Assembly (NCBI GenBank): GCA_017412045.1
Contig: JAFQOX010000013.1
Location: 1 to 34,929 of the forward strand
Direction: 5' to 3'
DNA: 34,929 bases
Source: Clostridia bacterium
GTDB taxonomy: Bacteria > Bacillota > Clostridia > Oscillospirales > CAG-272
In this document: positions 2,389 through 25,348 of the stretch, one piece after another
How positions within the stretch are numbered: the stretch's first letter is position 1
How the letters are laid out: the number at the start of each line of letters is the position of its first letter
Position numbers and translations under genes: made by a program
The notes under the pieces: model-generated
What the model was told of the DNA's origin: nothing
The model's input: only the letters and a program-made list of their open reading frames with translations
The model's database searches: none

Positions 2389-3759
2389 ATGACAATTTTG
2401 CATAAAAGCGTAAAACGGGATTTCTCAAGCGGTCCCGTATGGAAATGCATTGTCGCGCAGGCAATCCCTCTCACCGTTGCGCAGCTGGTGCATTTGCTGT
2501 ATAACGTGGTGGACAGAATCTATCTGGGGCACATGGGAGGAGACAGTATGGCTCTGACGGGTGTCGGTCTGACCTTTCCCATCGTTTCCCTGATCATGGC
2601 GTTTACGGCGCTCTTCGGTACGGGAGGCGTTCCGCTCTTTTCCATTGCGAGAGGCGCGGGGGACGAGGAGCGGGCAGGAAAGATTCTCGGAAATTCCTTT
2701 GCCTTGTTATTGGGCAGCTCCTTGATTTTGACCTTGGCGGGATTTCTTTTCGCTAAACCCATTCTCTTTGCGTTCGGCGCGGGCGAGGAATCCTACGTCT
2801 ACGCGAAGATGTATCTGGATATCTATTTGATCGGCACGGTTTTCTCCATGATCAGTACGGGTCTGAACGGCTATATCAACGCGCAGGGATTCCCGAAGAT
2901 CGGAATGTTGTCTGTCACCATCGGGGCTCTTTGCAATATTATTCTGGACCCCATCTTCATTTTCGGTATGCGTATGGGCGTTGCGGGCGCGGCGCTGGCA
3001 ACGGTCATCAGCCAAGCCGCTTCCGCGCTGTGGGTGCTGTTCTTCCTGACGGGAAAGAAGGCTTTGATCCCGCTTCGACGCAAACATATCGCCGTTCGCA
3101 AGGATATTACGAAGGATATCTGCAAATTGGGCACGGCAGGCTTTATCATGCAGGGAACGAACTGTCTGGTCCAGGTGGCTTGCAACTCCACGCTCCAGAC
3201 CTTCGGCGGAGACCTGTACGTGGGCATCATGACCGTGACGAACTCCGTCAGGGAAATCTTCACACTCCCCGTCTCGGGTATCGTTAACGGCGCCCAGCCC
3301 GTCATCGGCTTCAACTACGGCGCGAAGCAATACGACCGTGTCCGGCAGGGCATCCGTTTCAATACGCTCATCGGTACCGCATATACGATGCTGGCGTGGT
3401 TGCTCGTCATTCTGTTCCCGAAATTCTGGTTCGGCATTTTCTCCGACGATATCATGATGACCGAGCCGGGCATCGAGGCGCTGAAGATCTATTTTTTCGG
3501 CTTCGTATTCATGGCGTTGCAGTTTGCGGGGCAATCCACCTTCCAGGCGTTGGGAGATGCCAAGCACGCCATCTTTTTCTCACTGCTGCGTAAGGCTGTT
3601 ATCGTCGTTCCGCTGACGCTTCTGTTGCCTCACTTAGGCTTCGGCGTTCTGGGCGTGTTCATCGCAGAGCCCGTATCCAACGTGATCGGCGGCACTGCCT
3701 CCTACGTAACCATGCGTATGACGGTTTACAGAAGAATCAAAAACGAAATCAAAGAGTAA
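2389..3759 (+). CDS. MATE family multidrug/cation antiporter
   Basis: About 456 aa with twelve predicted membrane helices in two related halves, the usual MATE size and layout. Landmarks are the first-helix segment AQAIPLTVAQLVHLLYNVVD and LGHMGGDSMALTGVG. The second half repeats the pattern, with PVSGIVNGAQPVIGFNYGAK around residues 300-320. MATE proteins export drugs or metabolites in exchange for Na+ or H+. I chose ATG 2389 because GGAAGTG lies six nt before it; an upstream in-frame TTG (2374) has no such site. It follows the Imm26-like gene by 36 nt and may share its transcript, ending at the hairpin at 3946. Confidence 0.93.
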   Translation: MTILHKSVKRDFSSGPVWKCIVAQAIPLTVAQLVHLLYNVVDRIYLGHMGGDSMALTGVGLTFPIVSLIMAFTALFGTGGVPLFSIARGAGDEERAGKILGNSFALLLGSSLILTLAGFLFAKPILFAFGAGEESYVYAKMYLDIYLIGTVFSMISTGLNGYINAQGFPKIGMLSVTIGALCNIILDPIFIFGMRMGVAGAALATVISQAASALWVLFFLTGKKALIPLRRKHIAVRKDITKDICKLGTAGFIMQGTNCLVQVACNSTLQTFGGDLYVGIMTVTNSVREIFTLPVSGIVNGAQPVIGFNYGAKQYDRVRQGIRFNTLIGTAYTMLAWLLVILFPKFWFGIFSDDIMMTEPGIEALKIYFFGFVFMALQFAGQSTFQALGDAKHAIFFSLLRKAVIVVPLTLLLPHLGFGVLGVFIAEPVSNVIGGTASYVTMRMTVYRRIKNEIKE

Positions 3760-5336: not shown

Positions 5337-6713
5337 TCAGACGCCGAAATAGCGGATCGAATTATAATAGCATACGTCACGGACGACGCTGCCGACGAGC
5401 GCCTCGTCTGCGGTCATTTCGCCGCGTTCCATCATACCGCCGAGATAATTACAGAGGATGCGTCTGAAATAATGGTGGCGCGGATAGGAGAGCAGAGAGC
5501 GGCTGTCCGTCAGCATACCGATGAAGGTCGCGATATGTCCCGTCGCCGTAAGGTCCTCGAGGTGCTTTTCCATGCCCGTTTTATTGTCGAGGAACCACCA
5601 CGCGGGACCGTATTGGATCTTACCGCGCGCCTCGTCGCTCTGGAAACAGCCGATCAGTGTCATGATCTCCGCGTTCATCTTCGGATTCAGATTGAAAACG
5701 ATGGTTTTGGGCAGAGCGTTTTCGCTGTCCAGCCTGTCGAAAAGACGGGACATATATTTGATGGAATTGTCCTCGGCAATGCTGTCGAAGCCCGTATCCA
5801 AGCCGAGTTTTGCGAGCATACGGCTGTTGTTGTTCCGCATGGCGCCGATGTGAAGCTCGGTGGCGATATCGTATTTTGCGTAGAGCTTGAAAAGAAAATA
5901 GGTCAGATAGCCCTTGAAGATCTCACTTTCCCTTTCGCTGACGGATTCGCCCTTCATGCGTTTTTCAAACACGCTTGCCGCTTCAGCTTTTTGCGAGATG
6001 GGATATACGCTTTGCAGGGCGATGTCTGCCGCCCTCGCGCCGACGGCGATAAAGGCTTGCAGACGTTCCTCCAGCTTGGCTTCGAGCGCGTCGAGGTTTT
6101 CGACAATGCCGAGCTTGCCGACGAATTCAAGGTATTTTTCGGCTTCGATATTCATGATCTTGTCGGCGCGGAAGGCGGGAATGACCTTGAATTTGTAATT
6201 TTTCTCCGCGATCCTTCCGAAGGTGGAGAGATCGTCAAAGACCTCGTTGGTCGTACACAGATGCGTGACGTTCGACTGCTCGATCAGCATTTGGGGCGTG
6301 ACCTTGTTTGCGCGGATATAGGCGTTGCATTCGTCCCAGATCGCTTCCGCGTTTTCTTCGTTGATCTCCCTTTCACAGCCGAAAAATTCCTTCAGCTCGA
6401 CCTGCGACCAATGGTAGAGCGGGTTGCCGAAGGCGGTGCCCAGCACACGGCAGTAGGTGACGAATTTTTCCTTATTGGACGCGCCGCCCGTGATATATTC
6501 CTCACTCACGCCGTAATTTCTCATGAGACGCCATTTGTAATGGTCGCCCGCAAGCCAGATCTCGAAGGCATCGTGGAAAGGCTCGTTTTCCAGAATCTGC
6601 TTTTCGGGCAGATGGCAGTGATAGTCGAAGATGGGCATATCCTTCGCATAGGAAAAATAGAGTCTTTCCGCCGTCTTACCCGTCAATAAAAAATTGTTTC
6701 TGATGTAGTTCAT
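5337..6713 (-). CDS. uxaC: Uronate isomerase (glucuronate/galacturonate isomerase)
   Basis: The 458-aa protein catalyses D-galacturonate to D-tagaturonate and D-glucuronate to D-fructuronate, the first cytoplasmic step of hexuronate breakdown. It belongs to the amidohydrolase superfamily; the metal-binding HxH is visible in FDYHCHLPE (near residues 29-37). Further family segments are LAGDHYKWRLMRNYG and, near residue 410, GMLTDSRSLLSYPRHHYFRR. Length is normal. Its ATG overlaps the uxaA stop codon (ATGA), showing translational coupling in the order uxaB, uxaA, uxaC. Confidence 0.96.
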   Translation of the reverse strand: MNYIRNNFLLTGKTAERLYFSYAKDMPIFDYHCHLPEKQILENEPFHDAFEIWLAGDHYKWRLMRNYGVSEEYITGGASNKEKFVTYCRVLGTAFGNPLYHWSQVELKEFFGCEREINEENAEAIWDECNAYIRANKVTPQMLIEQSNVTHLCTTNEVFDDLSTFGRIAEKNYKFKVIPAFRADKIMNIEAEKYLEFVGKLGIVENLDALEAKLEERLQAFIAVGARAADIALQSVYPISQKAEAASVFEKRMKGESVSERESEIFKGYLTYFLFKLYAKYDIATELHIGAMRNNNSRMLAKLGLDTGFDSIAEDNSIKYMSRLFDRLDSENALPKTIVFNLNPKMNAEIMTLIGCFQSDEARGKIQYGPAWWFLDNKTGMEKHLEDLTATGHIATFIGMLTDSRSLLSYPRHHYFRRILCNYLGGMMERGEMTADEALVGSVVRDVCYYNSIRYFGV

Positions 6714-8101
6714 AACGTTACCCCCGTTTTATAAAATGCGATTTCTCTGATATCCTCGCTCTTGCAAGTATATTCTCCGTTTGCGGTCCTGAGGATCAGT
6801 GCAAAGAGCGCTTCCTCGTCCATGCCGTAGGCATTGAAGTCGATCCAATTTGCCTTGCGCGCGGAAATGCCGTCGTTTGTGGCGATCTTCAGCGTCGGCA
6901 CGAAGGTGGAAAAGGGCGTGCCCCTTCCCGTAGTGAAAAGGATGATCTGCGCCCCGCTCGCTGCCAGCGCCGTTGCCGCGATCAGATCGTTGCCGGGCGC
7001 GTTCAGCACGGAAACGCCACGCTCCCGTACGGGCTCGCCGTAGTCCAGCACGTCGTTGACCGCGCTCGTCCCCGCCTTCTCAATACAGCCGAGGGACTTC
7101 TCCTCCAGCGTCGTGATCCCGCCCTTTTTGTTGCCGGGGCTGGGATTCTCGTAAACGGGAAAGCCTGCGCGGAGATAGGAATCCTTGAAATCCACGATCA
7201 TTTTGCGATACCGCTCGAAAATTTCCGCGTTTTTGCATTTATTCATCAGAATCTGCTCCGCGCCGAACATTTCAGGCACTTCGGTGAGGATCGCACTTCC
7301 GCCCGCGCCCACGATCCTGTCGGTGATCCTGCCCACGAGCGGATTTGCCGTAAGACCCGAATAGCCGTCGCTGCCGCCGCATTTAAGCCCGAGGCATAGC
7401 TCCGAAAGATCGACGTCCTCACGGCGAAGCGCACTCGCCTTCTCGGCGAAGGCGCGAAGGAGCTCCATGCCGTACGCGTGCTCGTCCTCCACGTCCTGAC
7501 AGTTGAAATAGGCGATATTTTCTCTGCCGTAAGGCGCGAGGTATTCCTTCACACCCTCCAGACCGTTGTTTTCACAGCCGAGACCGACGAAAAGCACGTA
7601 GGCGGCGTTCGGATTCAGCGCGACGGCGCAGAGCAGCTTTTTGATATTTTCGTTGTCCTCGCCGAGCTGGGAACAGCCGAACTGATGGGTGAGCGCAAAA
7701 ACGCCGTCAAGACCTCCGCGTACGTATTTCTGCGCGTCCTTCGCCAGACGCATACAAACGTTGTTGACGCATCCGACCGTCGGGATAATATAGATCTCGT
7801 TGCGAACGCCCGCCCTGCCGTGCTTGCGCCTATAGCCGCGGAAGGTGTGCTTCTCCGGAGCGGGAACGTCGGCGCGGAAACTGTAAGCGTATTCCACGCT
7901 CTCGTCCAGATGGGATCGCAGATTATGCGTATGCACCCAATCGCCCGCGGCGATGGGACGCGTGGCTTTGCCGATGATCTCGCCGTATTTGACGACGGCT
8001 TCGCCCTCGGCAATGGGGCGCAGAGCGTATTTGTGTCCTGCGGGGACGGTTGCGTTCCCTTCAAGGCATACGCCCACGTTATCTTTTTTGTCAATAATCA
8101 T
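6710..8101 (-). CDS. uxaA: Altronate dehydratase
   Basis: About 463 aa. It dehydrates D-altronate to 2-keto-3-deoxygluconate, the third step of galacturonate catabolism. An N-terminal SAF domain (about residues 1-75, containing GDWVHTHNLRSHLD) precedes the UxaA catalytic region with GYRRKHGRAGVRNEIYIIPT and LGLKCGGSDGYSGLTANP. I chose ATG 8101 because it overlaps the uxaB stop (ATGA) and gives the normal SAF start; a 29-residue upstream extension inside uxaB is not conserved-looking. It overlaps uxaC in the same way at its other end. Confidence 0.95.
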   Translation of the reverse strand: MIIDKKDNVGVCLEGNATVPAGHKYALRPIAEGEAVVKYGEIIGKATRPIAAGDWVHTHNLRSHLDESVEYAYSFRADVPAPEKHTFRGYRRKHGRAGVRNEIYIIPTVGCVNNVCMRLAKDAQKYVRGGLDGVFALTHQFGCSQLGEDNENIKKLLCAVALNPNAAYVLFVGLGCENNGLEGVKEYLAPYGRENIAYFNCQDVEDEHAYGMELLRAFAEKASALRREDVDLSELCLGLKCGGSDGYSGLTANPLVGRITDRIVGAGGSAILTEVPEMFGAEQILMNKCKNAEIFERYRKMIVDFKDSYLRAGFPVYENPSPGNKKGGITTLEEKSLGCIEKAGTSAVNDVLDYGEPVRERGVSVLNAPGNDLIAATALAASGAQIILFTTGRGTPFSTFVPTLKIATNDGISARKANWIDFNAYGMDEEALFALILRTANGEYTCKSEDIREIAFYKTGVTL

Positions 8102-9498
8102 AGCAGACAAGCTCCGTTTTTGATTTTTTCGATGTTGGCGGCGACCGCTTCGTAAAAGCCCTCGTACCGCGTGAGATCCTCGCCCCACACGCGCTCATCC
8201 GCCAGAAATGCGCGAAGCGGATTTCTCTCCGCGAAATATTCTAAATACGCGGCTTCGTCCTTGATCTCGATCGCGCGGTCCGCAAGTCTGACCGCGTAGC
8301 CGTCTGCCGTCCTTTCGATGCCCGAATAGAGCGCCATCAGATAGGAGAAGCCCACGGTCAGCCTCGGCGCGATCTCGCCGTGCTCCGCGTAATAATCACG
8401 GAAGGATGGAAGCACACGCGCCTTCCATTTGGAGATCGAATTGAGGGCAATGCTGACGAGAAGATGGTTCAGGAAGGGATTGCGGAAGCGATCCTTTACG
8501 CTTTCGGCAAACGCCTCCGTCGCCGCGGTATCGCTCGATACGTAGGGAATGATCTCGTTTTTCAGCGTTTCTTCCGCAAAGGCGGAAAGCCTTTCGTCGG
8601 TCATGCAGTCGTAAACCGTTTCCATGCCGAGCATGAGCCCCGCGGGGACGAGATTGGTGTGACTGCCGTTCAGCACGCGCACCTTTCTCTTTTTGTAATA
8701 CCCGATGTCGTCCGTCAGAACGACCTCAATATCGTGGATACCTTCCTTGATATAATCCGAAATATTCCCCTTTTTTTCGATCGCCCAGAGTCCGAAGGGC
8801 TCCGCGACCGTCATCAGTCCGTCAGACGCACCGATCAGCTTTTCCAGATGCACCTTTGTCTGACCGTCGGCGGGATAGCCCGATACGATGCGGTCCACGA
8901 GCGTATTGCAATAGAAATTCTTCTCGTCGTTCCAACGCTTGAAGCCCTCGGGCAAATGCCAGAGTCCGATATAGCGATCCACACAATCCTTCAGTGCGTC
9001 GGCGTTGCCGTCGATCAGCTCTGCGGGGAGGATATAAAGCCCGTCCAGTCCCGCGCAGTATCGCGCGAAAAGAAATTGCGTCAGCTTGGCGGGATAGGAG
9101 ATGCTGTGAAAGCCATCGATCCGATCGTCGGCGTTGAAACAGATCCCCGCCTCGGTGGTATTGGAGATCACCAGCTTCAGCTCGGGATCGCCCGCAAGCG
9201 CGATATAAGCGCCGTGATCCTCAAAGGGATTGATGAAGGCGCGGATCGCCTCCACCCGATTCGCCGTTTCCACCGTCGAGCCGCCCTCACAGCCGCGGAG
9301 AATCACGTGATACCGATTCTGCTGCTTTTCAAAAAGCGCCGTCTGTCCCGCCTTTTTCGAGGGCGTTGGCTTGATAACGTATACGCCGTAATCGCCGCCC
9401 TCATGATTGGGGGTATCCTCGCGGTTCAGCGTATGAAAATAAGCGTCGGCAAAGGCGCGCAGAAAATTGCCCTCGCCGTATTGTAATACTTTGATCAT
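8098..9498 (-). CDS. uxaB: Tagaturonate reductase (altronate oxidoreductase)
   Basis: The 466-aa member of the mannitol dehydrogenase family reduces D-tagaturonate to D-altronate with NADH. It starts with VLQYGEGNFLRAFADAY, the nucleotide-binding opening shared with fructuronate reductase. The signature VRVLNGSHTNLVPAG lies near residue 270. It is the first gene of the uxaB-uxaA-uxaC operon, divergent from the GH4 gene, with AGAAAGGAT before its ATG. No fructuronate branch gene (uxuA/uxuB), kdgK or kdgA lies in the window. Confidence 0.93.
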   Translation of the reverse strand: MIKVLQYGEGNFLRAFADAYFHTLNREDTPNHEGGDYGVYVIKPTPSKKAGQTALFEKQQNRYHVILRGCEGGSTVETANRVEAIRAFINPFEDHGAYIALAGDPELKLVISNTTEAGICFNADDRIDGFHSISYPAKLTQFLFARYCAGLDGLYILPAELIDGNADALKDCVDRYIGLWHLPEGFKRWNDEKNFYCNTLVDRIVSGYPADGQTKVHLEKLIGASDGLMTVAEPFGLWAIEKKGNISDYIKEGIHDIEVVLTDDIGYYKKRKVRVLNGSHTNLVPAGLMLGMETVYDCMTDERLSAFAEETLKNEIIPYVSSDTAATEAFAESVKDRFRNPFLNHLLVSIALNSISKWKARVLPSFRDYYAEHGEIAPRLTVGFSYLMALYSGIERTADGYAVRLADRAIEIKDEAAYLEYFAERNPLRAFLADERVWGEDLTRYEGFYEAVAANIEKIKNGACLL

Positions 9499-18970: not shown

Positions 18971-18999
18971 TTGCAAACGGTGTCGATTTATGTTATATT
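18971..18999 (+). promoter_or_regulatory. Promoter of the membrane-protein operon
   Basis: TTGCAA (18971-18976) and TATATT (18994-18999), 17-nt spacer, plus strand. The two outward promoters are about 60 nt apart, which allows joint regulation. Confidence 0.6.
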
Positions 19000-19037
19000 A
19001 TAATCTAATTGGAATCATTTATCGCAAGGAGGGCCGT

Positions 19038-20621
19038 ATGACTGATATATGCAGTTATCATACGTTTATTTTGCCCGTCGTTATGAGCGGAACGGGCAAG
19101 GCGATCCACTCGTTTGACCAGATTACGAAGTGCTTCGATCGGAACTTCTATTGGAAAAGAAGTGATCCGAAGGACAAAAACAGTTTTCCCGATGAGGAAA
19201 ATTTCCGCTCTTATTATAAAGAGTATCAATACTTTTACCCGCAGGTCCGCAACGCCATTTACGGAAACGACGGCAGTATCGTCAGATCCTATTCGTTTGC
19301 GGCGGAAAACGTGCACGAAAAGGCACATTACTACATTACGAAGCGAAACAGAACCTACGATCTCCTGATCAACGCGATCCGCCTGAAGGTCTATAATACG
19401 GGCGTGGCGCTCTTTATTATGGAGTGTGAGAATCACGGCAGGGACAAATTCGGAAACAAGCAGGATTCTTTCGCAGATATTAAAAATATCAACGACTACG
19501 GCAGAAGAATCACGCTTCCCTTTATTCCCGAAAAGCCCGAATTTTCCATCTGCGCGGATAAGCTGGAAATCAGCATTCCGGAGCTCAGCATTTCCTTCGG
19601 ATCGGATTTCCGAAGCTTTATCGAAAACGTAAACCAAAGCAACACCCCCAAAGAGTTGATCAATCTCAATCATCTTTGTGATTTCGTGAAAAGCATTATC
19701 AATTACGGCGGAGATTATTGCTTTTCCACCAACGGCGAAAAGGACGCACCCAAAAACGCTTTCCGCCTCCGTCTGGCTCTTGACGACCGTATGTTCGTCG
19801 CTTGCATCGCCATCAACGGAGACGAAGCGAAAGCCATGCTTGCTACCGATCAAAATAAATCCTTTGATGAAGAACGCCGGTATGCTTATGAGACCGATGA
19901 AAAGCTCTCAAAAAGTCTCTACGAGTTTATCTTTGTGGACCCTGCCGGGGATTGCACCTGTCAGTCCGGTACCATGCGTAAGTCTCTTTTGGAAGAGCAC
20001 GTCTATAAAAGATGGTTTGATTACGGAAGCATATACGGTTTAGCGGCGCAGAGCATCGTATTTTTGTTCGATGGAAGCGTCGATCACTTGATCGAATCAT
20101 TTCTGACCGTCTATGAGAAGATCGCTTGTCTCTGCATCGTGCAAAGAGCGTCCATCGTGGAGTTTCAGAAGGAACTGGCGAACCTTTCCATCCAGATTCA
20201 CGACAAGGGCAACCGCATGAGAACCAGCACGATCACGCTTTTGATGGATTTACAGGAACGCTTCGCAGCGTTTGAGAGCCAGATCTGCTTTACGGAGATT
20301 TCCTGCCAGGAGCAGGCAATTGAGATTTACGAAGCGATGACGAAATTCTTCTTTATCGACGACGAAATGGCGAATATCAAATCTCAGCTTGCCGTTCTGA
20401 ACGAGGCGGCAAATACTTACCTGGATTTCGGATTCAATAAGGTCGGTTATATTTTCACTATCCTAGGCGGTATTTTCGGCGTACTTGGACTCAGCTGGTT
20501 GGGAACGGATAATGCTGTTATGATGGGTCCTCACGACAAAATGATACTCATCAACAGTTTTGGCTTTGGCGCTTTGGTGTGGATTTCGGTATTTTGGCAT
20601 TACAGAAGGAGAAGAAATTAA
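19038..20621 (+). CDS. CorA-like membrane protein with two C-terminal helices, unknown function
   Basis: About 527 aa, no family recognised with certainty. A long soluble N-terminal region (about 1-465) of mixed strands ends in helices, followed by two membrane helices (about 469-490, FTILGGIFGVLGLSWLG, and about 501-522, INSFGFGALVWISVFWHY) and a basic RRRRN end. This layout matches CorA-type channels, but the GMN selectivity motif in the loop is absent, so Mg2+ transport should not be assumed. The loop reads TDNAVMMGPHD. AAGGAGG precedes ATG 19038. The next gene begins one nt after its stop. Placement opposite the zinc-ribbon/SPFH genes suggests a membrane partner for them. Confidence 0.6.
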   Translation: MTDICSYHTFILPVVMSGTGKAIHSFDQITKCFDRNFYWKRSDPKDKNSFPDEENFRSYYKEYQYFYPQVRNAIYGNDGSIVRSYSFAAENVHEKAHYYITKRNRTYDLLINAIRLKVYNTGVALFIMECENHGRDKFGNKQDSFADIKNINDYGRRITLPFIPEKPEFSICADKLEISIPELSISFGSDFRSFIENVNQSNTPKELINLNHLCDFVKSIINYGGDYCFSTNGEKDAPKNAFRLRLALDDRMFVACIAINGDEAKAMLATDQNKSFDEERRYAYETDEKLSKSLYEFIFVDPAGDCTCQSGTMRKSLLEEHVYKRWFDYGSIYGLAAQSIVFLFDGSVDHLIESFLTVYEKIACLCIVQRASIVEFQKELANLSIQIHDKGNRMRTSTITLLMDLQERFAAFESQICFTEISCQEQAIEIYEAMTKFFFIDDEMANIKSQLAVLNEAANTYLDFGFNKVGYIFTILGGIFGVLGLSWLGTDNAVMMGPHDKMILINSFGFGALVWISVFWHYRRRRN

Positions 20622-21460: not shown

Positions 21461-22915
21461 TTATGCGCAGAGATCACGGTAGCGCTCCGAAGCAAGGATG
21501 CTTTTCATCATACCGAACGGCGTAATATCGCAGGACATTGCCTGACGGAAGAGGGAGGGGGACGCACCGGAAAACAGCGCGACGCCCTTTTCATTCATAT
21601 CGACGGGGAAGGCGTCTCTGCGCGCACACAGATTCCAATAGACAATCTGCGGCAAACGGTAGCCGTATTTCTCATAATATTTCCGCGCCGTTTCGATCGG
21701 CCGCGCGGACGGCTCCACGCCCATGTCGAATTGCATATCGGAAAGAATATAGATCATTTCGGGCAGCTCCGATTGCGGAAGCTTGTACTTGACTGCGGTC
21801 CTTAAAATGAGCGCATACACCGCGCAAAGATTGGTATTGGCAACCTCATTGTAGGAGCGGCAGTATTGTACCTTGTCGCGGAGTGTGTTTCCTTTGATCT
21901 CGATCAAACGGGGCGTGGATGAAAACGTGATAAAATGATTGGCGAATTTTCCTTTGTTTCTTTCCGCAAAATACAAGCCGAGAGAAAGGGCAACATCGAT
22001 CGGACGCGGCGAATTTTCATTGTAACTGCCATACATAGAGCCGGATCCGTCGACGACGGCGATGGCGTTACGTCCGTCGGTATAATCGGGCAAAGCGTTC
22101 CAGGCAGCGTCGAGGCTGTCGTTCAGAGCCTCGCCTTCGTCCTGATCGACGGCGCGTATGAGCTCGTATGGATAGAGAGTGGAGGTGTTCATTTTTTTGC
22201 GGTTTTCCGAGACGTCGCGAATGTAGGTTTCATAGTTTTTCGTATCGTGGACGGAAAACGCTTTCCGATATTGAAACAAAGCTTTTGACGGGATTTTTTC
22301 ATAATCAAAGGAGTAATCTCCCCGGCATAAATGCGTTTCCGGAACGTCAATTTCCGCGCGAAGCCGAGAGAGGGTCTGTCGGTATTCCTTCTCCGTCATA
22401 TGGAGAAGCTTGCAAATTTGTTTTGCTTGCGCTTTGGACCCGGAGGCGTTTACGGAGGGAAGCCATTTGGCGAGCAGGGATACCGGCTTGCCCGCCTGCA
22501 AATTCCTCAGGTCCGATCGCAGTTGCTCCTTGAGATATTCTCCGAGCGCCGCTTCGCACGGTGTGCCGAGAAGCTCCAGCAGATCGTCGAAACGTCCGTA
22601 TTCGGGAACGTTGCGCAGGTTTTTCAGAACGGACTGCGTTTTTTGATTGGCAAGATACCGCAGGACGATTCTGAAAAAACGACGCTCGCCGAGTCCACCT
22701 CTGACGTCTCTCGCGTAAAAAAGTATTTTTATTGCCGCATCGGGGTCTTCTACGTAAGCGCGGAGAAATTTATGACAAATTTCAGACGGTTCTTCCCCGC
22801 GCAAAGCGCCGCACGTGGCGAACAGGTCAAGACAGGACGAATGCGTGGAACGATAAGCGACCGCTCCGTTTTCGGTGGTCGTCAGATTGGATTCTTCTTT
22901 GAATGCATTTAACAT
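21461..22915 (-). CDS. DUF2828 protein: TROVE-like RNA-binding region plus vWA domain (Ro60-related)
   Basis: 484 aa. The opening TENGAVAYRSTHSSCLDLF is typical of DUF2828. A HEAT-repeat-like, TROVE-type helical region follows (ILFYARDVRGGLGERRFFR near residue 65, FDDLLELLGTP near 110, LLAKWLPSVNASG near 145). A C-terminal von Willebrand A domain starts near residue 283 with a MIDAS motif DGSGSM (VVDGSGSMYGS), then FITFSS and ILSDMQFD. Ro60/Rsr proteins have the same two-part build and bind Y RNAs and misfolded RNAs for quality control with exonucleases. DUF2828 members are little studied, so an RNA role is inferred. AAAGGAGG precedes ATG 22915. A candidate small RNA gene and a tandem repeat lie upstream on the same strand. 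Confidence 0.85.
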   Translation of the reverse strand: MLNAFKEESNLTTTENGAVAYRSTHSSCLDLFATCGALRGEEPSEICHKFLRAYVEDPDAAIKILFYARDVRGGLGERRFFRIVLRYLANQKTQSVLKNLRNVPEYGRFDDLLELLGTPCEAALGEYLKEQLRSDLRNLQAGKPVSLLAKWLPSVNASGSKAQAKQICKLLHMTEKEYRQTLSRLRAEIDVPETHLCRGDYSFDYEKIPSKALFQYRKAFSVHDTKNYETYIRDVSENRKKMNTSTLYPYELIRAVDQDEGEALNDSLDAAWNALPDYTDGRNAIAVVDGSGSMYGSYNENSPRPIDVALSLGLYFAERNKGKFANHFITFSSTPRLIEIKGNTLRDKVQYCRSYNEVANTNLCAVYALILRTAVKYKLPQSELPEMIYILSDMQFDMGVEPSARPIETARKYYEKYGYRLPQIVYWNLCARRDAFPVDMNEKGVALFSGASPSLFRQAMSCDITPFGMMKSILASERYRDLCA

Positions 22916-23116
22916 GGTATACCCTCCTTTCAGGGTTTGAATTTACAATAAATCTGTTTTTGATCGGAACGCCGTTTTCTCCCACACGATACCGAGATTT
23001 GTATTTAATTGTAGCGGAGAACGCAGTCTCCTTTCGGGCGCCCTTTGAAACGGGCTTTGCCGTATGTACGGCAAATAAAAATAAATTCCACTTCAAAAAT
23101 TTGCTGTGTGTATCGT

Positions 23117-23191
23117 TCAGGGAGTGACCGATGCGGGATCTGGATATGCAGGATTGCCGATCCGACGGTTAACCTCGGAGATCAGCGGCAT
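23117..23191 (-). CDS. Short ORF in tandem repeat unit 1 (24 aa)
   Basis: AAGGAGG lies six nt before ATG 23191. The peptide begins MPLISEVNRRIGNPAY and ends DPASVTP. It is not hydrophobic. Compared with the unit-2 copy, most changes are at third codon positions, as expected for translated sequence. An opposite-strand frame shares the same wobble positions, so this is supportive only. Could be a leader peptide or a small protein. Confidence 0.4.
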   Translation of the reverse strand: MPLISEVNRRIGNPAYPDPASVTP

Positions 23192-23379
23192 CAAAGACCT
23201 CCTTGCAATGAAATATGGCGTACCCAATCCGAACGCTGTTTTCTCCCACACGATACCGATATTTGTATTCAATTGTAGCGGAGAACGCAGTCTCCTTTCA
23301 GGCGCCCTTTGAAACGGGCTTTGCCGTATGTACGGCAAATAAAAATCAATTTCACTTCAAAATTTGCTGTATGTATCGT

Positions 23380-23454
23380 TCAGGGAGTGACCGACGCGGG
23401 ATCGGAATATGCCGGATTGCCGATCCGGCGGTTAACCTCGGAGATCAGCGGCAT
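23380..23454 (-). CDS. Short ORF in tandem repeat unit 2 (24 aa)
   Basis: Same ribosome binding site, length and stop position as the unit-1 copy, with one amino-acid difference (Pro to Ser before DPASVTP). Unit 3 keeps only the tail (DPAS, then a stop at the equivalent place), so it is broken there. Confidence 0.4.
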   Translation of the reverse strand: MPLISEVNRRIGNPAYSDPASVTP

Positions 23455-23781
23455 CAAAGACCTCCTTGCAATGAAATATGGCGTGCCCGATCCGAGCGCC
23501 GTTTTCTCCCACACGATACGGATTACTCAATTATAACGGTAGCGGAGAACGCAGTCTCCGTTCAGACGCCCTTTGAGACGGGCTTTGCCGTATGTACGGC
23601 AAACAAAAATCATGTCAATCATTGCTGTGCGTATCGTTCAGAGAGAAGCTGAAGCGGGATCGGTATGCCAAGGTGCTTATGCAATTATCAAAGAACAAAG
23701 CGGACGTACCCGCCGGAATCGGCTCTCCGCCCATTTGCCCGAAGTGGGACAAAAATGGGGCAGATTGCGCAAATTCCTATG

Positions 23782-23944
23782 AAAAAATAAAAAATGAGAC
23801 CTTTAATTTCAGCATTTAGATACAGTTATCCCCTGGAATCGAAGATGACAATTTTAAAAATATCTAAATACAAAAATTAAAGGTCTCAAACTTTAAATTT
23901 TGATTCAATTTTAGCGGGTTGCCGAAGAAGCGGCTTCCGAATTC
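23782..23944 (-). ncRNA. Candidate small RNA with long terminal hairpin (Y-RNA-like)
   Basis: The predicted minus-strand transcript runs from a start near 23944, just after a consensus promoter, to a U6-A-U6 tract at 23782-23794, about 160 nt. Its 3' two-thirds form a 94-nt hairpin (23795-23888). A perfect 15-bp outer stem (TGAGACCTTTAATTT with AAATTAAAGGTCTCA) leads to a 4x4 internal loop, a perfect 9-bp inner stem (ATTTAGATA/TATCTAAAT) and a 38-nt apical loop. A small GCCG/CGGC hairpin sits in the 5' leader. There is no convincing ORF. Y RNAs, partners of Ro60 proteins, likewise have a long stem closed by their ends, a large loop and a U-rich tail, and lie beside their protein gene. I cannot see a definite Ro-binding motif. 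It could instead be an unrelated sRNA or just an unusually large terminator. Confidence 0.6.
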
Positions 23945-23950
23945 TCTCCT

Positions 23951-23979
23951 ATCATATCACATTATTTGATATTTGTCAA
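23951..23979 (-). promoter_or_regulatory. Consensus promoter of the small RNA
   Basis: TTGACA (23974-23979) and TATGAT (23951-23956), 17-nt spacer, on the minus strand. No coding region follows before the U-tract at 23782, so it must drive an RNA. Confidence 0.8.
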
Positions 23980-24016: not shown

Positions 24017-25348
24017 TCACGAAAGCGCTTTCAATTTCAGATAGACGTATGCGTTCGCTTCAGCATCACACCAAGCGCGGTGCGCTTCATTCTGGACGAT
24101 GCCGAAGTGCGAGGAAAGCGTGGTGAGTTTGATATTCTCCCAGCCCTGCGCTTCCTTGTGCTTCATCGCGAGCGCTTTGGTATCGAGATACGAGTTTTCA
24201 AAGCGGATGCCTGCGCGTTTTGCGGCGCGGGTGATATGGGGAATGTCACAGCTCTTGATATTGTGTCCGACCAGAACCGCATCGCCGACGAAGTCCTTGA
24301 AGCGCTTGACGGTATCGCTGACAGAGGGCTTGTTCGCGACCATACTGTCGGTAATATGCGTGAGGCGGGCAACTCTCGGAACGATCTTTCGTCCGGGATT
24401 ACAAAGCTCGTCAAATCGGTCTACGACGACACCGCCGACGACCTTGACCGCGCCGATTTCGATGATCTCCGCCTCGGCATCGCCGTGCGCCGCGCCGAAG
24501 GTGCCCGTATGTTCAATATCAAAGGCGACGAAGGTATCAAAGTCGGGAACTGTCTTTTCCTGCATACACTTCGGCATACCGTCCTCGATCTCCTCCACGT
24601 CGAGCCCCATCAGGTCCATCTGTGTCAGAAGTTGGAGCATCTGACGCTCGTTTGCGACGATCTTCAGCACCTTATAGCCGAGAACACCGACGTCCTCTTC
24701 GGCTTCGGGTTCCTCCTGCTTGCTCTCGTTCAGGGATGCCATGAACTGCTCCGCACGCGCCAAGGAAAGCGTCTCGTAATAATGCGCCATCAGAGCGGGC
24801 GCGTTCTTGCCAGCGGCGGACTGAATACTGCGGATATCGCTCGATGCCTGTCCGACGGTGGCTTCAATATCCGCCTTCCACTGTTTTTCGCGGTACGTGG
24901 CGTTCAACCATTTGGGATTGAAGAAAGCAGGGCTTTCCACGATCTTATCGGCGTATTCTCCGAGAACTTCCGCTTTTTTCTTGGCAAAAGCGAGAATTTC
25001 CTGACGCTTGATCTCCTTTTCTGCGGATTTGATGAAATCGTCGGCAACCGTGAAGGGCGCTTTTACCATCTCGATCAGCTCCTTCAGCTTTGCCTCCACG
25101 TCGATATAGGGGGCGGTGTAAGCGGCTTCGATCTCTTTTTTCTTATCCTCAAGAAGCTTTTTCACCTTTTTGAGTTCATCGCGATGGGTTTTCGCGATCT
25201 CGATATTTTCGACCGAATACGTAAAGCCCTGATAATACTTGACTCCCTTTGCCAGCGCTTCCCTGAGCGCTTCATAATTGTGAAACAGTACGATGCCCGG
25301 CTCATGCTCCGTCTGAACGACGAGCTCGGCAGAATAAAATTTTTGCAT
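24017..25348 (-). CDS. DUF1351 (phage-type) domain fused to a DnaQ-like exonuclease
   Basis: 443 aa. The N-terminal ~215 residues match DUF1351, a coiled-coil-rich phage protein family (KYYQGFTYSVENIEIAKTHR, LEDKKKEIEAAY, KWLNATYREKQWKADIEATV). An acidic linker (EEPEAEEDVG) follows, and from about residue 268 there is a DEDDh exonuclease: FVAFDIEHTG, IIEIGAVKVV, LVGHNIKSCDIPHI and HRAWCDAEA, all catalytic acids and the histidine present. DUF1351 genes normally sit in phage recombination modules beside RecT-type genes; no phage genes are here. AAAGGAG precedes ATG 25348, behind a TTGCAA/TATACT promoter. An exonuclease beside a Ro60-like gene is suggestive of RNA turnover, but DNA is an equally possible substrate. 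Confidence 0.85.
   Translation of the reverse strand: MQKFYSAELVVQTEHEPGIVLFHNYEALREALAKGVKYYQGFTYSVENIEIAKTHRDELKKVKKLLEDKKKEIEAAYTAPYIDVEAKLKELIEMVKAPFTVADDFIKSAEKEIKRQEILAFAKKKAEVLGEYADKIVESPAFFNPKWLNATYREKQWKADIEATVGQASSDIRSIQSAAGKNAPALMAHYYETLSLARAEQFMASLNESKQEEPEAEEDVGVLGYKVLKIVANERQMLQLLTQMDLMGLDVEEIEDGMPKCMQEKTVPDFDTFVAFDIEHTGTFGAAHGDAEAEIIEIGAVKVVGGVVVDRFDELCNPGRKIVPRVARLTHITDSMVANKPSVSDTVKRFKDFVGDAVLVGHNIKSCDIPHITRAAKRAGIRFENSYLDTKALAMKHKEAQGWENIKLTTLSSHFGIVQNEAHRAWCDAEANAYVYLKLKALS

What the first reader, a model, noticed from the sequence alone, without database searches (positions are those of the whole stretch)
23782..23979. Orphan promoter driving a Y-RNA-like hairpin upstream of a Ro60-related gene
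Seen: a TTGACA-17-TATGAT promoter on the minus strand is followed by no ORF, a 94-nt hairpin with 15-bp and 9-bp perfect stems around a 4x4 internal loop, and a U6-A-U6 tract. Established: Ro60/Rsr proteins bind Y RNAs, which have long end-paired stems, large loops and U-rich 3' ends, and whose genes often lie beside the protein gene. Inference: this is the RNA partner of the DUF2828 protein at 21461-22915. As far as I know, RNA partners of DUF2828 proteins are not described.
Basis: partly seen in the sequence, partly recalled or inferred. Interest (0 to 1): 0.8.

Follow-up and report, generated by a model that had tools for sequence, protein, structure and literature searches.

The report
RNA array beside Ro60-like gene
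Next to a gene for a Ro60-like protein lies a small array of structured RNAs, part of a large family seen beside this gene in gut bacteria and phages, many of whose members imitate pieces of transfer RNA; the hairpin first pointed out is a neighbour, not one of them.

Summary
The promoter and hairpin exist as described; the fold is far from chance (z -8.0). The hairpin is single-copy in its genome, has no clear relative in 58 other genomes or viral contigs, and lacks the signature below. It is best read as a short RNA ending in an intrinsic terminator.

Between hairpin and gene lie three tandem units (23645-22980, minus strand): basal stem, two bases, ACAGCA, variable interior, closing stem, G. 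The signature taken from other genomes occurs three times in the window, only here (0.04 expected). The same units flank DUF2828 genes in Clostridia, plasmids and phages. In a test not selecting for pairing, 226 of 256 five-prime motifs have their own closing arm, against 22 on average with foreign arms and 1 of 36 elsewhere. A covariance model hits 61 of 80 bacterial and 50 of 80 viral loci, every hit on the gene strand. Many interiors mimic tRNA. RtcB and WYL genes are frequent neighbours. I found no description of this family; its decoy or repair role is inferred.

The parts
21461..22915 (-). DUF2828/DUF7788 protein, 484 aa, Ro60-like, with DGSGSM (vWA-type metal motif, recalled)
   Evidence: Pfam PF11443 E=2e-33, PF25043 E=1e-42; phrog_850 'RNA-binding protein' E=4e-136; profile match to TROVE E=2.9e-4, probability 41%
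22980..23123 (-). Y-RNA-like unit C (core 22985-23116): ACGATAC-AC-ACAGCA ... GTATCGTG, outer UCCC/GGGA stem, three inner hairpins
   Evidence: (z -3.1, 1 of 200 shuffles as low)
23243..23386 (-). Y-RNA-like unit B (core 23249-23379)
   Evidence: (z -3.1, 1 of 200)
23506..23645 (-). Y-RNA-like unit A (core 23512-23637), the most diverged of the three
   Evidence: (z -2.9, 4 of 200)
22962..23612 (-). 264-bp tandem repeat that carries the units
   Evidence: 2.5 copies, 91% matches
23117..23191 (-). inter-unit segment with a possible 24-codon frame behind AAGGAGG; ends in the outer arm of unit C
   Evidence: function unknown; segment 23117-23247 has no special fold (z -0.5)
23380..23454 (-). second copy of the 24-codon frame, ends in the outer arm of unit B
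   Evidence: z -8.0; no clear relatives
23951..23979 (-). sigma-A type promoter TTGACA-17-TATGAT with TG before the -10

Best explanation
The window holds a three-unit array of Y-RNA-like noncoding RNAs (23645-22980, minus strand) that are the RNA partners of the DUF2828 protein encoded just downstream. Each unit is a module whose ends pair in a basal stem followed by two bases and ACAGCA; I infer that the Ro60-like protein grips this conserved base. The interior differs between units and in many relatives copies part of a tRNA: a T arm, a lone anticodon arm, a whole tRNA body, or a circularly permuted tRNA. With RtcB ligase and WYL regulators as frequent neighbours, the system most likely serves tRNA damage: the array offers tRNA look-alikes on a Ro60-like scaffold, to occupy or report anticodon nucleases or to bring repair and decay enzymes to tRNA pieces. 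Shown: the array, its signature, its link to DUF2828 in bacteria and phages, the exchange of stem pairs, the tRNA mimicry in relatives. Inferred: transcription, processing, binding by DUF2828, the decoy or repair role.
For: Window: consensus of the other units, GRYRCNNACAGCAA, gives 3 sites, all in the array and on the gene strand, 0.04 expected, 0 of 100 shuffles; the exact window stem ACGATAC/GTATCGTG recurs in a viral and a bacterial DUF2828 array (L199, L140). Relatives: 226 of 256 five-prime motifs upstream of DUF2828 have their own closing arm + G, foreign arms mean 22 (max 38 of 200 permutations), 1 of 36 elsewhere and 1 of 45 on the other strand. Viral loci, 64 distinct: 93 units in 75.6 kb upstream (42 of 64 loci), 55 in 389 kb elsewhere on the strand, 2 in 464 kb of reverse strand. 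Covariance model R1: hits in 21 of 25 DUF2828 loci that gave it no sequence and 0 of 6 non-DUF2828 loci in the same call; 61 of 80 and 50 of 80, all hits on the gene strand; 0 of 27 control loci; in 197 genomes 11 had a hit and 10 of them are DUF2828 genomes. Pattern AAGGCACNNACAGCAA in 394 genomes: 18 of 27 sites lie upstream of DUF2828; the other 9 have no closing arm by the rule. tRNA mimicry. Neighbours RtcB and WYL.
Against: No expression or binding data. The window units themselves do not reach significance with the model (12.0 and 11.0 bits for B and C, E about 1; unit A not listed), presumably because their interiors are more than twice as long, and their interiors show no clear tRNA arm (one search finds no tRNA). 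The window array lacks the promoter element of the relatives and has no RtcB or WYL gene within the 16 kb scanned. 30 of 256 motifs have no closing arm. 4 of 25 DUF2828 loci, 19 of 80 and 30 of 80 have no model hit at E 0.01. Only about a quarter of units show a tRNA arm by the strict rules (54 of 226; 24 of 96). Similarity of DUF2828 to TROVE is weak and no structure could be predicted. No PDB sequence matches the profile at E up to 1.
Confidence: 0.75

Rival explanations
1. The reader's hairpin (23782-23908) is itself the RNA partner of DUF2828, a Y-RNA with long end-paired stem and U-rich tail.
For: Strong promoter-like site and very stable fold; same strand and about 0.9 kb upstream of the gene.
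Against: No clear copy or relative found; lacks ACAGCA; a set of conserved RNAs occupies the space between it and the gene; its stem followed directly by U6 is what an intrinsic terminator looks like.
Confidence: 0.08
2. The hairpin is an intrinsic terminator or attenuator: the sigma-A promoter makes a short RNA of about 160 nt, and the array and DUF2828 are expressed by read-through, perhaps regulated.
For: GC-richer stem base directly before U6-A-U6; promoter-like site 23979-23951, none listed on the minus strand between hairpin and unit A; in 11 of 80 bacterial relatives a promoter element begins 52-55 nt before the next unit, which leaves no room for such a hairpin, so the hairpin is an addition of this locus.
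Against: Attenuators usually show an alternative fold, which I did not look for systematically; no relatives to compare. The terminator scan does not list it (its loop rule is 3-8 nt).
Confidence: 0.6
3. The array is a cis-acting leader (T-box-like or attenuation control) of the DUF2828 mRNA rather than a set of trans-acting RNAs.
For: In many bacterial loci the array lies directly upstream of DUF2828 or of RtcB; tRNA-like parts are known in leaders (recalled).
Against: Units lie downstream of the gene in phages Finnry, CF1 and nataliec; hits per locus vary from one to seven; each unit closes on itself with its own stem. Stem-NN-ACAGC hairpins also sit inside phage tRNA genes.
Confidence: 0.12
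4. The array is a mobile repeat or a decaying tRNA cluster with no bond to DUF2828.
For: High variability; tRNA pieces inside; the window's repeats are tandem duplicates.
Against: Strand-specific bond to DUF2828 across bacteria and phages, with no hit in 27 control loci; paired arms exchanged together; single place in the own genome.
Confidence: 0.05

Closest known systems
Bacterial Y RNA YrlA and its Ro60 orthologue Rsr (rsr-yrlBA-rtcBA operon of Salmonella)
   Same: Ends pair in a basal stem; tRNA-like domain in many units; 3 of 25 classifiable bacterial units, and by eye some phage units, are circularly permuted with D, T and acceptor arms; gene beside a Ro60-like protein and often RtcB (passages in PMC7790460, PMC8394870).
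   Different: Protein is DUF2828, and TROVE was not found in 394 genomes of the order; up to seven model hits per locus instead of the two Yrl RNAs of the Salmonella operon; ACAGCA after the stem; many units carry anticodon arms, which the reviewed YrlA domain does not; WYL-type regulators recur as neighbours (RtcR was not looked for).
Vertebrate Y RNA bound by Ro60
   Same: End-paired stem as binding site, highly variable loop (PMC4726728 passages).
   Different: Binding site there is a 7-bp helix with a bulged C and an opposite 3-nt bulge; not seen in these units. No homology claimed.
Ro-like RNA-binding protein of mycobacteriophages (annotation)
   Same: Same protein family as the window's DUF2828 (38.5% identity, Finnry); band-7 gene and a tRNA nearby.
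   Different: The units found there stand downstream of the gene.
Intrinsic terminators
   Different: Unusually long and AU-rich stem with a second hairpin on top.

Membership tests
Bacterial Y RNA (Yrl) | 5' and 3' ends pair in a basal stem | tested here: met
   relatives; window units
Bacterial Y RNA (Yrl) | bound by a Ro60 orthologue through the basal stem | not testable with these tools
   genomic bond only
Bacterial Y RNA (Yrl) | encoded beside a Ro60-family gene | tested here: inconclusive
   beside DUF2828, whose match to TROVE is weak
Bacterial Y RNA (Yrl) | tRNA-like domain | tested here: inconclusive
   met in a part of the relatives' units; not evident in the three window units
Bacterial Y RNA (Yrl) | match to a known RNA family model | tested here: not met
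   Rfam at gathering: none in window; in 11 + 13 related loci only tRNA and, outside the arrays, SAM riboswitch. I did not check whether Rfam holds a YrlA family
Ro60/TROVE (PF05731) | match to the TROVE profile | tested here: not met
   window protein hits PF11443 and PF25043 only; profile comparison E=2.9e-4, probability 41%, over 96 columns
DUF2828 (PF11443) | profile over the curated cut-off | tested here: met
   116.2 bits against 29
The ACAGCA array family described here | stem of 7 pairs, two bases, ACAGCA, interior, closing stem, G | tested here: met
   three units in the window; but no significant model score
   no ACAGC in the printed sequence of 23944-23782; no model hit there
Intrinsic terminator (hairpin) | stem with GC-richer base directly followed by a U tract | tested here: met
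   sequence and fold; termination itself not testable

The most novel reading that the evidence does not exclude
DUF2828 proteins and their arrays are a defence and counter-defence layer against anticodon nucleases: each array is a library of anticodon-arm and tRNA decoys (in phage units the recognisable anticodons are UGA, GUU, UUU, GCA, GCU and GAU) held on a Ro60-like protein, used by bacteria together with WYL sensors and RtcB, and by phages, some of which even build the stem with ACAGC into full tRNA genes.
Probability: 0.3. Interest if true: 0.92.

Novelty: new variant of a known kind. Interest (0 to 1): 0.78.

Why it matters
DUF2828 genes occur in 673 of 50,697 phage records and in many gut and rumen Clostridia (record titles), with no described function in the papers I could search (four papers listed, all on plants; listing only). 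A definable RNA family bound to them turns an unknown protein into a testable Ro60-type ribonucleoprotein, suggests that Y-RNAs can come as hypervariable arrays, and that tRNA mimicry by Y-RNAs includes the anticodon arm, the part that anticodon nucleases cut. It gives a simple search rule (stem, two bases, ACAGCA, stem, G) by which others can find the RNAs.

Tried and rejected
Hairpin as mobile element: single copy in the genome. Hairpin as known RNA: no Rfam match at gathering; the permissive search gives weak microRNA-type and other matches far below gathering. Promoter-region matches in other genomes: ordinary promoters by eye, no shared downstream RNA. First genome contigs and viral-contig scans with the single protein confirmed no relatives; alignments did (both lists capped at the best 80). 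Window-array pattern in viral contigs: none. Canonical TROVE in the order: none in 394 genomes. Model R1 on the window: not significant. Inter-unit segment as a structured RNA: not more stable than shuffles. The promoter element count gave 0 of 80 through a mistake in my pattern; corrected to 20 of 80.

Caveats on counts: the 100% pairing is by selection and is not used as evidence; the test without that selection is. The unit rules also admit chance pairs. R1 was built from 84 of the 115 short units listed (46 viral, 38 bacterial); these match by construction. Burroughs and Aravind 2016, Chen et al. 2014 and two reviews of bacterial Y RNAs are not held, so prior mention of arrays beside DUF2828 there cannot be excluded.

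Full report
The minus-strand promoter (23979-23951) and the hairpin with U6-A-U6 tail are present. The hairpin folds at -41.2 kcal/mol, z -8.0. It has no second copy in the 2.57-Mb genome; the only other matches there are its own opposite arm and chance stretches of 16-21 bases. In 58 other genomes (35 of genus and family, the rest of the order) the whole intergenic stretch matches only through the promoter region (11 genomes) and, in G006, through 31 T-rich bases at the hairpin's tail, 23795-23765. A degenerate 27-base pattern of its arm finds nothing in viral contigs. The promoter resembles ordinary promoters of these bacteria, by eye also of tRNA genes.

Between hairpin and DUF2828 lies a tandem array, period 264 bp, 22962-23612. 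On the minus strand it holds three units: CTCYC-TGA-ACGATAC-NN-ACAGCAA ... GTATCGTG-TGGGAG with three inner hairpins, z -2.9 to -3.1 each. Five DUF2828 homologues found in 97 genomes searched (own included; about 52% identity) each have directly upstream two or more units of the same build with other stems, for example AAGGCAC-NN-ACAGCAA ... GTGCCTTG.

IS THE ARRAY REALLY TIED TO DUF2828? PF11443 occurs in 23 of 394 genomes of the order. I took flanks of 25 DUF2828 genes plus the window; strict units number 82 in 46.8 kb upstream (1.75 per kb), 39 in 270 kb elsewhere on the strand (0.14 per kb) and 38 in 355 kb of the other strand (0.11 per kb). A search that ignores DUF2828, pattern AAGGCACNNACAGCAA in 394 genomes of the order, gave 27 sites in 21 genomes; 18 sites in 12 genomes lie upstream of DUF2828; the other 9 sites in 9 genomes have no closing arm by the rule used and no DUF2828, WYL or RtcB homologue within the 8-12 kb fetched. 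The reversed control pattern has, by my reading of that table, 7 hits in 7 genomes. Eighty named loci (the best 80 of 572; Clostridia mostly by title, also Synergistaceae, Acidaminococcaceae and others) and eighty viral loci (the best 80 of 329) extend this. A model built from 84 short units of relatives hits 61 of 80 bacterial loci (131 hits) and 50 of 80 viral loci (138 hits), every hit on the gene strand (the 84 building sequences are drawn from these loci). In loci that gave it no sequence it hits 21 of 25 DUF2828 loci (not L064, L065, L190, L196) and 0 of 6 others. In another call it hits 0 of 27 control loci and, at E up to 0.1, 2 of 10 DUF2828 loci that had no closed unit. In 197 genomes it hits 11; 10 are DUF2828 genomes; the eleventh (G215, one hit, 29.7 bits) is within what chance allows at E 0.01 per genome. 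The own genome is not among the 11.

IS IT AN RNA STRUCTURE? Choosing only by the 5' motif, 226 of 256 sites have their own closing arm plus G within about 260 nt; with arms of other units 22 on average, 38 at most in 200 permutations; the same motif elsewhere closes in 1 of 36 and on the other strand in 1 of 45 cases (106 loci, the window's own stem does not fit that motif and is not counted). Stems differ widely, also within one array, so pairs are exchanged together. In 64 distinct viral loci 42 have a unit within 1.2 kb upstream: 93 units in 75.6 kb, 55 in 389 kb elsewhere on the strand (long arrays and downstream units included), 2 in 464 kb of the other strand; own closing arm 83 of 184 against 5.8 on average, 15 at most.

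DOES THE WINDOW ARRAY BELONG? The consensus GRYRCNNACAGCAA of the other units finds exactly three sites in 34,929 bases, all in the array on the right strand; 0.04 expected, 0 of 100 shuffles reach three. A variant, RYGCNNACAGCAA, finds none. The window's stem ACGATAC/GTATCGTG is found in units of a viral locus (L199) and a bacterial locus (L140). Against this, the model scores window units B and C only 12.0 and 11.0 bits, E about 1, as partial matches, and does not list unit A: their interiors are about 100 nt rather than about 40.

WHAT THE INTERIORS ARE. 226 bacterial-set units have a median of 84 nt, range 46-275. A 5-pair hairpin with a 7-nt loop of tRNA type is present in 54 of 226 (shuffled mean 1.4, at most 4), the T-arm motif in 50 (shuffled 4.1, at most 9), an anticodon-arm hairpin by a looser rule in 46 (shuffled 11.4, at most 19). 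Of 25 units with T- and D-arm motifs 22 have tRNA order and 3 are circularly permuted like YrlA. Of 96 distinct viral units from 39 loci 24 hold a 7-nt loop CU-NNN-RA on at least four pairs (shuffled mean 1.0, at most 3; seven altered loop rules 0-4), with only six triplets: UGA, GUU, UUU, GCA, GCU, GAU; some of these loci are close relatives. By eye, units of phages TJE2, PJN02 and Finnry contain permuted tRNAs. Within the arrays of the loci scanned Rfam sees only tRNA; SAM riboswitches were seen elsewhere in two flanks. The window's own interiors are three plain hairpins; I could not show tRNA mimicry for them.

COMPANY. Around the 26 DUF2828 genes of the first set the recurring neighbours are two WYL-type regulators (18 and 15 loci) and RtcB (13 loci) (named from one representative each); in 77 named loci with at least 300 nt upstream RtcB is near in 41 and WYL in 45. 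In 20 of 80 loci an element CGCA-N1-3-T7-CCGTG stands upstream, in 11 of them 52-55 nt before a unit; it occurs 0 times after the gene start and 0 times on the reverse strand. A -10 like hexamer follows it in many of these (by eye), which would put the start of transcription near the first unit; the WYL proteins are its likely readers (inference).

THE PROTEIN. TROVE was not found in 394 genomes of the order; 6 of 299 in the phylum have it. Profile comparison of DUF2828 with four of these TROVE proteins: E 2.9e-4, probability 41%, over 96 columns ending past the DxSGSM motif. Mycobacteriophage annotators call the homologue 'Ro-like RNA binding protein', so the Ro link of the protein is not new. 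673 of 50,697 phage records and 4 of 72,556 plasmid records encode it. I looked at 11 of these: units upstream by the strict rule in the Bacillus phage and its plasmid relative, the Listeria and Enterococcus phages, a Subdoligranulum plasmid and a gut phage scaffold; three by eye with short stems in the Jeotgalibacillus plasmid; downstream by the model in Finnry, CF1 and nataliec; none in the Vibrio phage apart from one chance-like pair.

MECHANISM. From published work, seen as passages: the Salmonella operon rsr-yrlBA-rtcBA is switched on by tRNA fragments, and the authors suggest that the tRNA-like part of YrlA, which the nuclease did not cut, might inhibit the anticodon nuclease competitively (PMC7790460); YrlA mimics D, T and acceptor arms and tethers Rsr to PNPase (PMC8394870); WYL domains are said to recognise cyclic nucleotides (PMC7824862). 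The arrays here fit such a system in which the RNA part has multiplied. I favour: DUF2828 holds the base of each unit, the interior shows a tRNA-like surface to nucleases or repair enzymes. The decoy reading fits the anticodon arms and their presence in phages; a scaffold for repair or decay fits equally the T-arm and permuted units. Neither is tested.

THE HAIRPIN. Most likely a terminator or attenuator at the head of the transcript. It could give a short stable RNA, but nothing ties it to DUF2828 other than position.

LIMITS. No transcripts, no binding data, no structure. Literature was searched for DUF2828 and for Ro60/Y RNA with arrays, WYL, RtcB, tandem, hypervariable, anticodon decoys and phage Ro-like proteins in open-licence papers only; of the listed papers I saw passages of four and the listing of the rest; key papers are not held.

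Noticed in passing
L204:2236-2346, 2434-2548, 2635-2749; L209:2125-2240, 2248-2364: Viral tRNA matches of 111-117 nt; by eye each holds, after the D arm, a hairpin stem (two of the five with a mismatch) followed by two bases and ACAGC, as if the unit's basal stem were built into a full tRNA.
   Followed up: partly
L099 (own genome contig C140), 5507-11282: WYL-WYL-SPFH-RtcB gene order with the same promoter element as the DUF2828 arrays, a tRNA-Asp call at 8711-8783, but no DUF2828.
   Followed up: partly
bacterial DUF2828 loci, e.g. L104, L114, L117, L143: Element CGCA-N1-3-TTTTTTT-CCGTG, often about 54 nt before the next unit; 20 of 80 loci, never after the gene start or on the reverse strand. 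Possible operator of the WYL regulators.
   Followed up: partly
window 23454-23380 and 23191-23117, minus: Two copies of a 24-codon frame (MPLISEVNRRIGNPAYSDPASVTP and one variant) behind AAGGAGG; by eye four of five differences fall in third positions; its stop lies in or beside the outer stem of the next unit.
   Followed up: no
window 18990-20621, plus: Divergent CorA-like protein (PADLOC CorA, E=1e-68), a name that I recall from type III CRISPR loci; no Pfam match.
   Followed up: no
window 24017-25348, minus: DUF1351 fused to a DEDDh exonuclease, phage-like, directly upstream of the promoter.
   Followed up: no
L197 about 2870-3270 (Enterococcus phage TJE2): Each unit is preceded by a repeated segment (about GGTTTTxxCA...CATAG...GGAACATAAAGAA) that differs between copies; perhaps a processing signal (by eye).
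   Followed up: no
L193 (Listeria phage LMSP-25, 8.5 kb): DUF2828, units, several tRNAs and a tRNA-splicing ligase gene (6338-7549) together in one phage stretch.
   Followed up: partly
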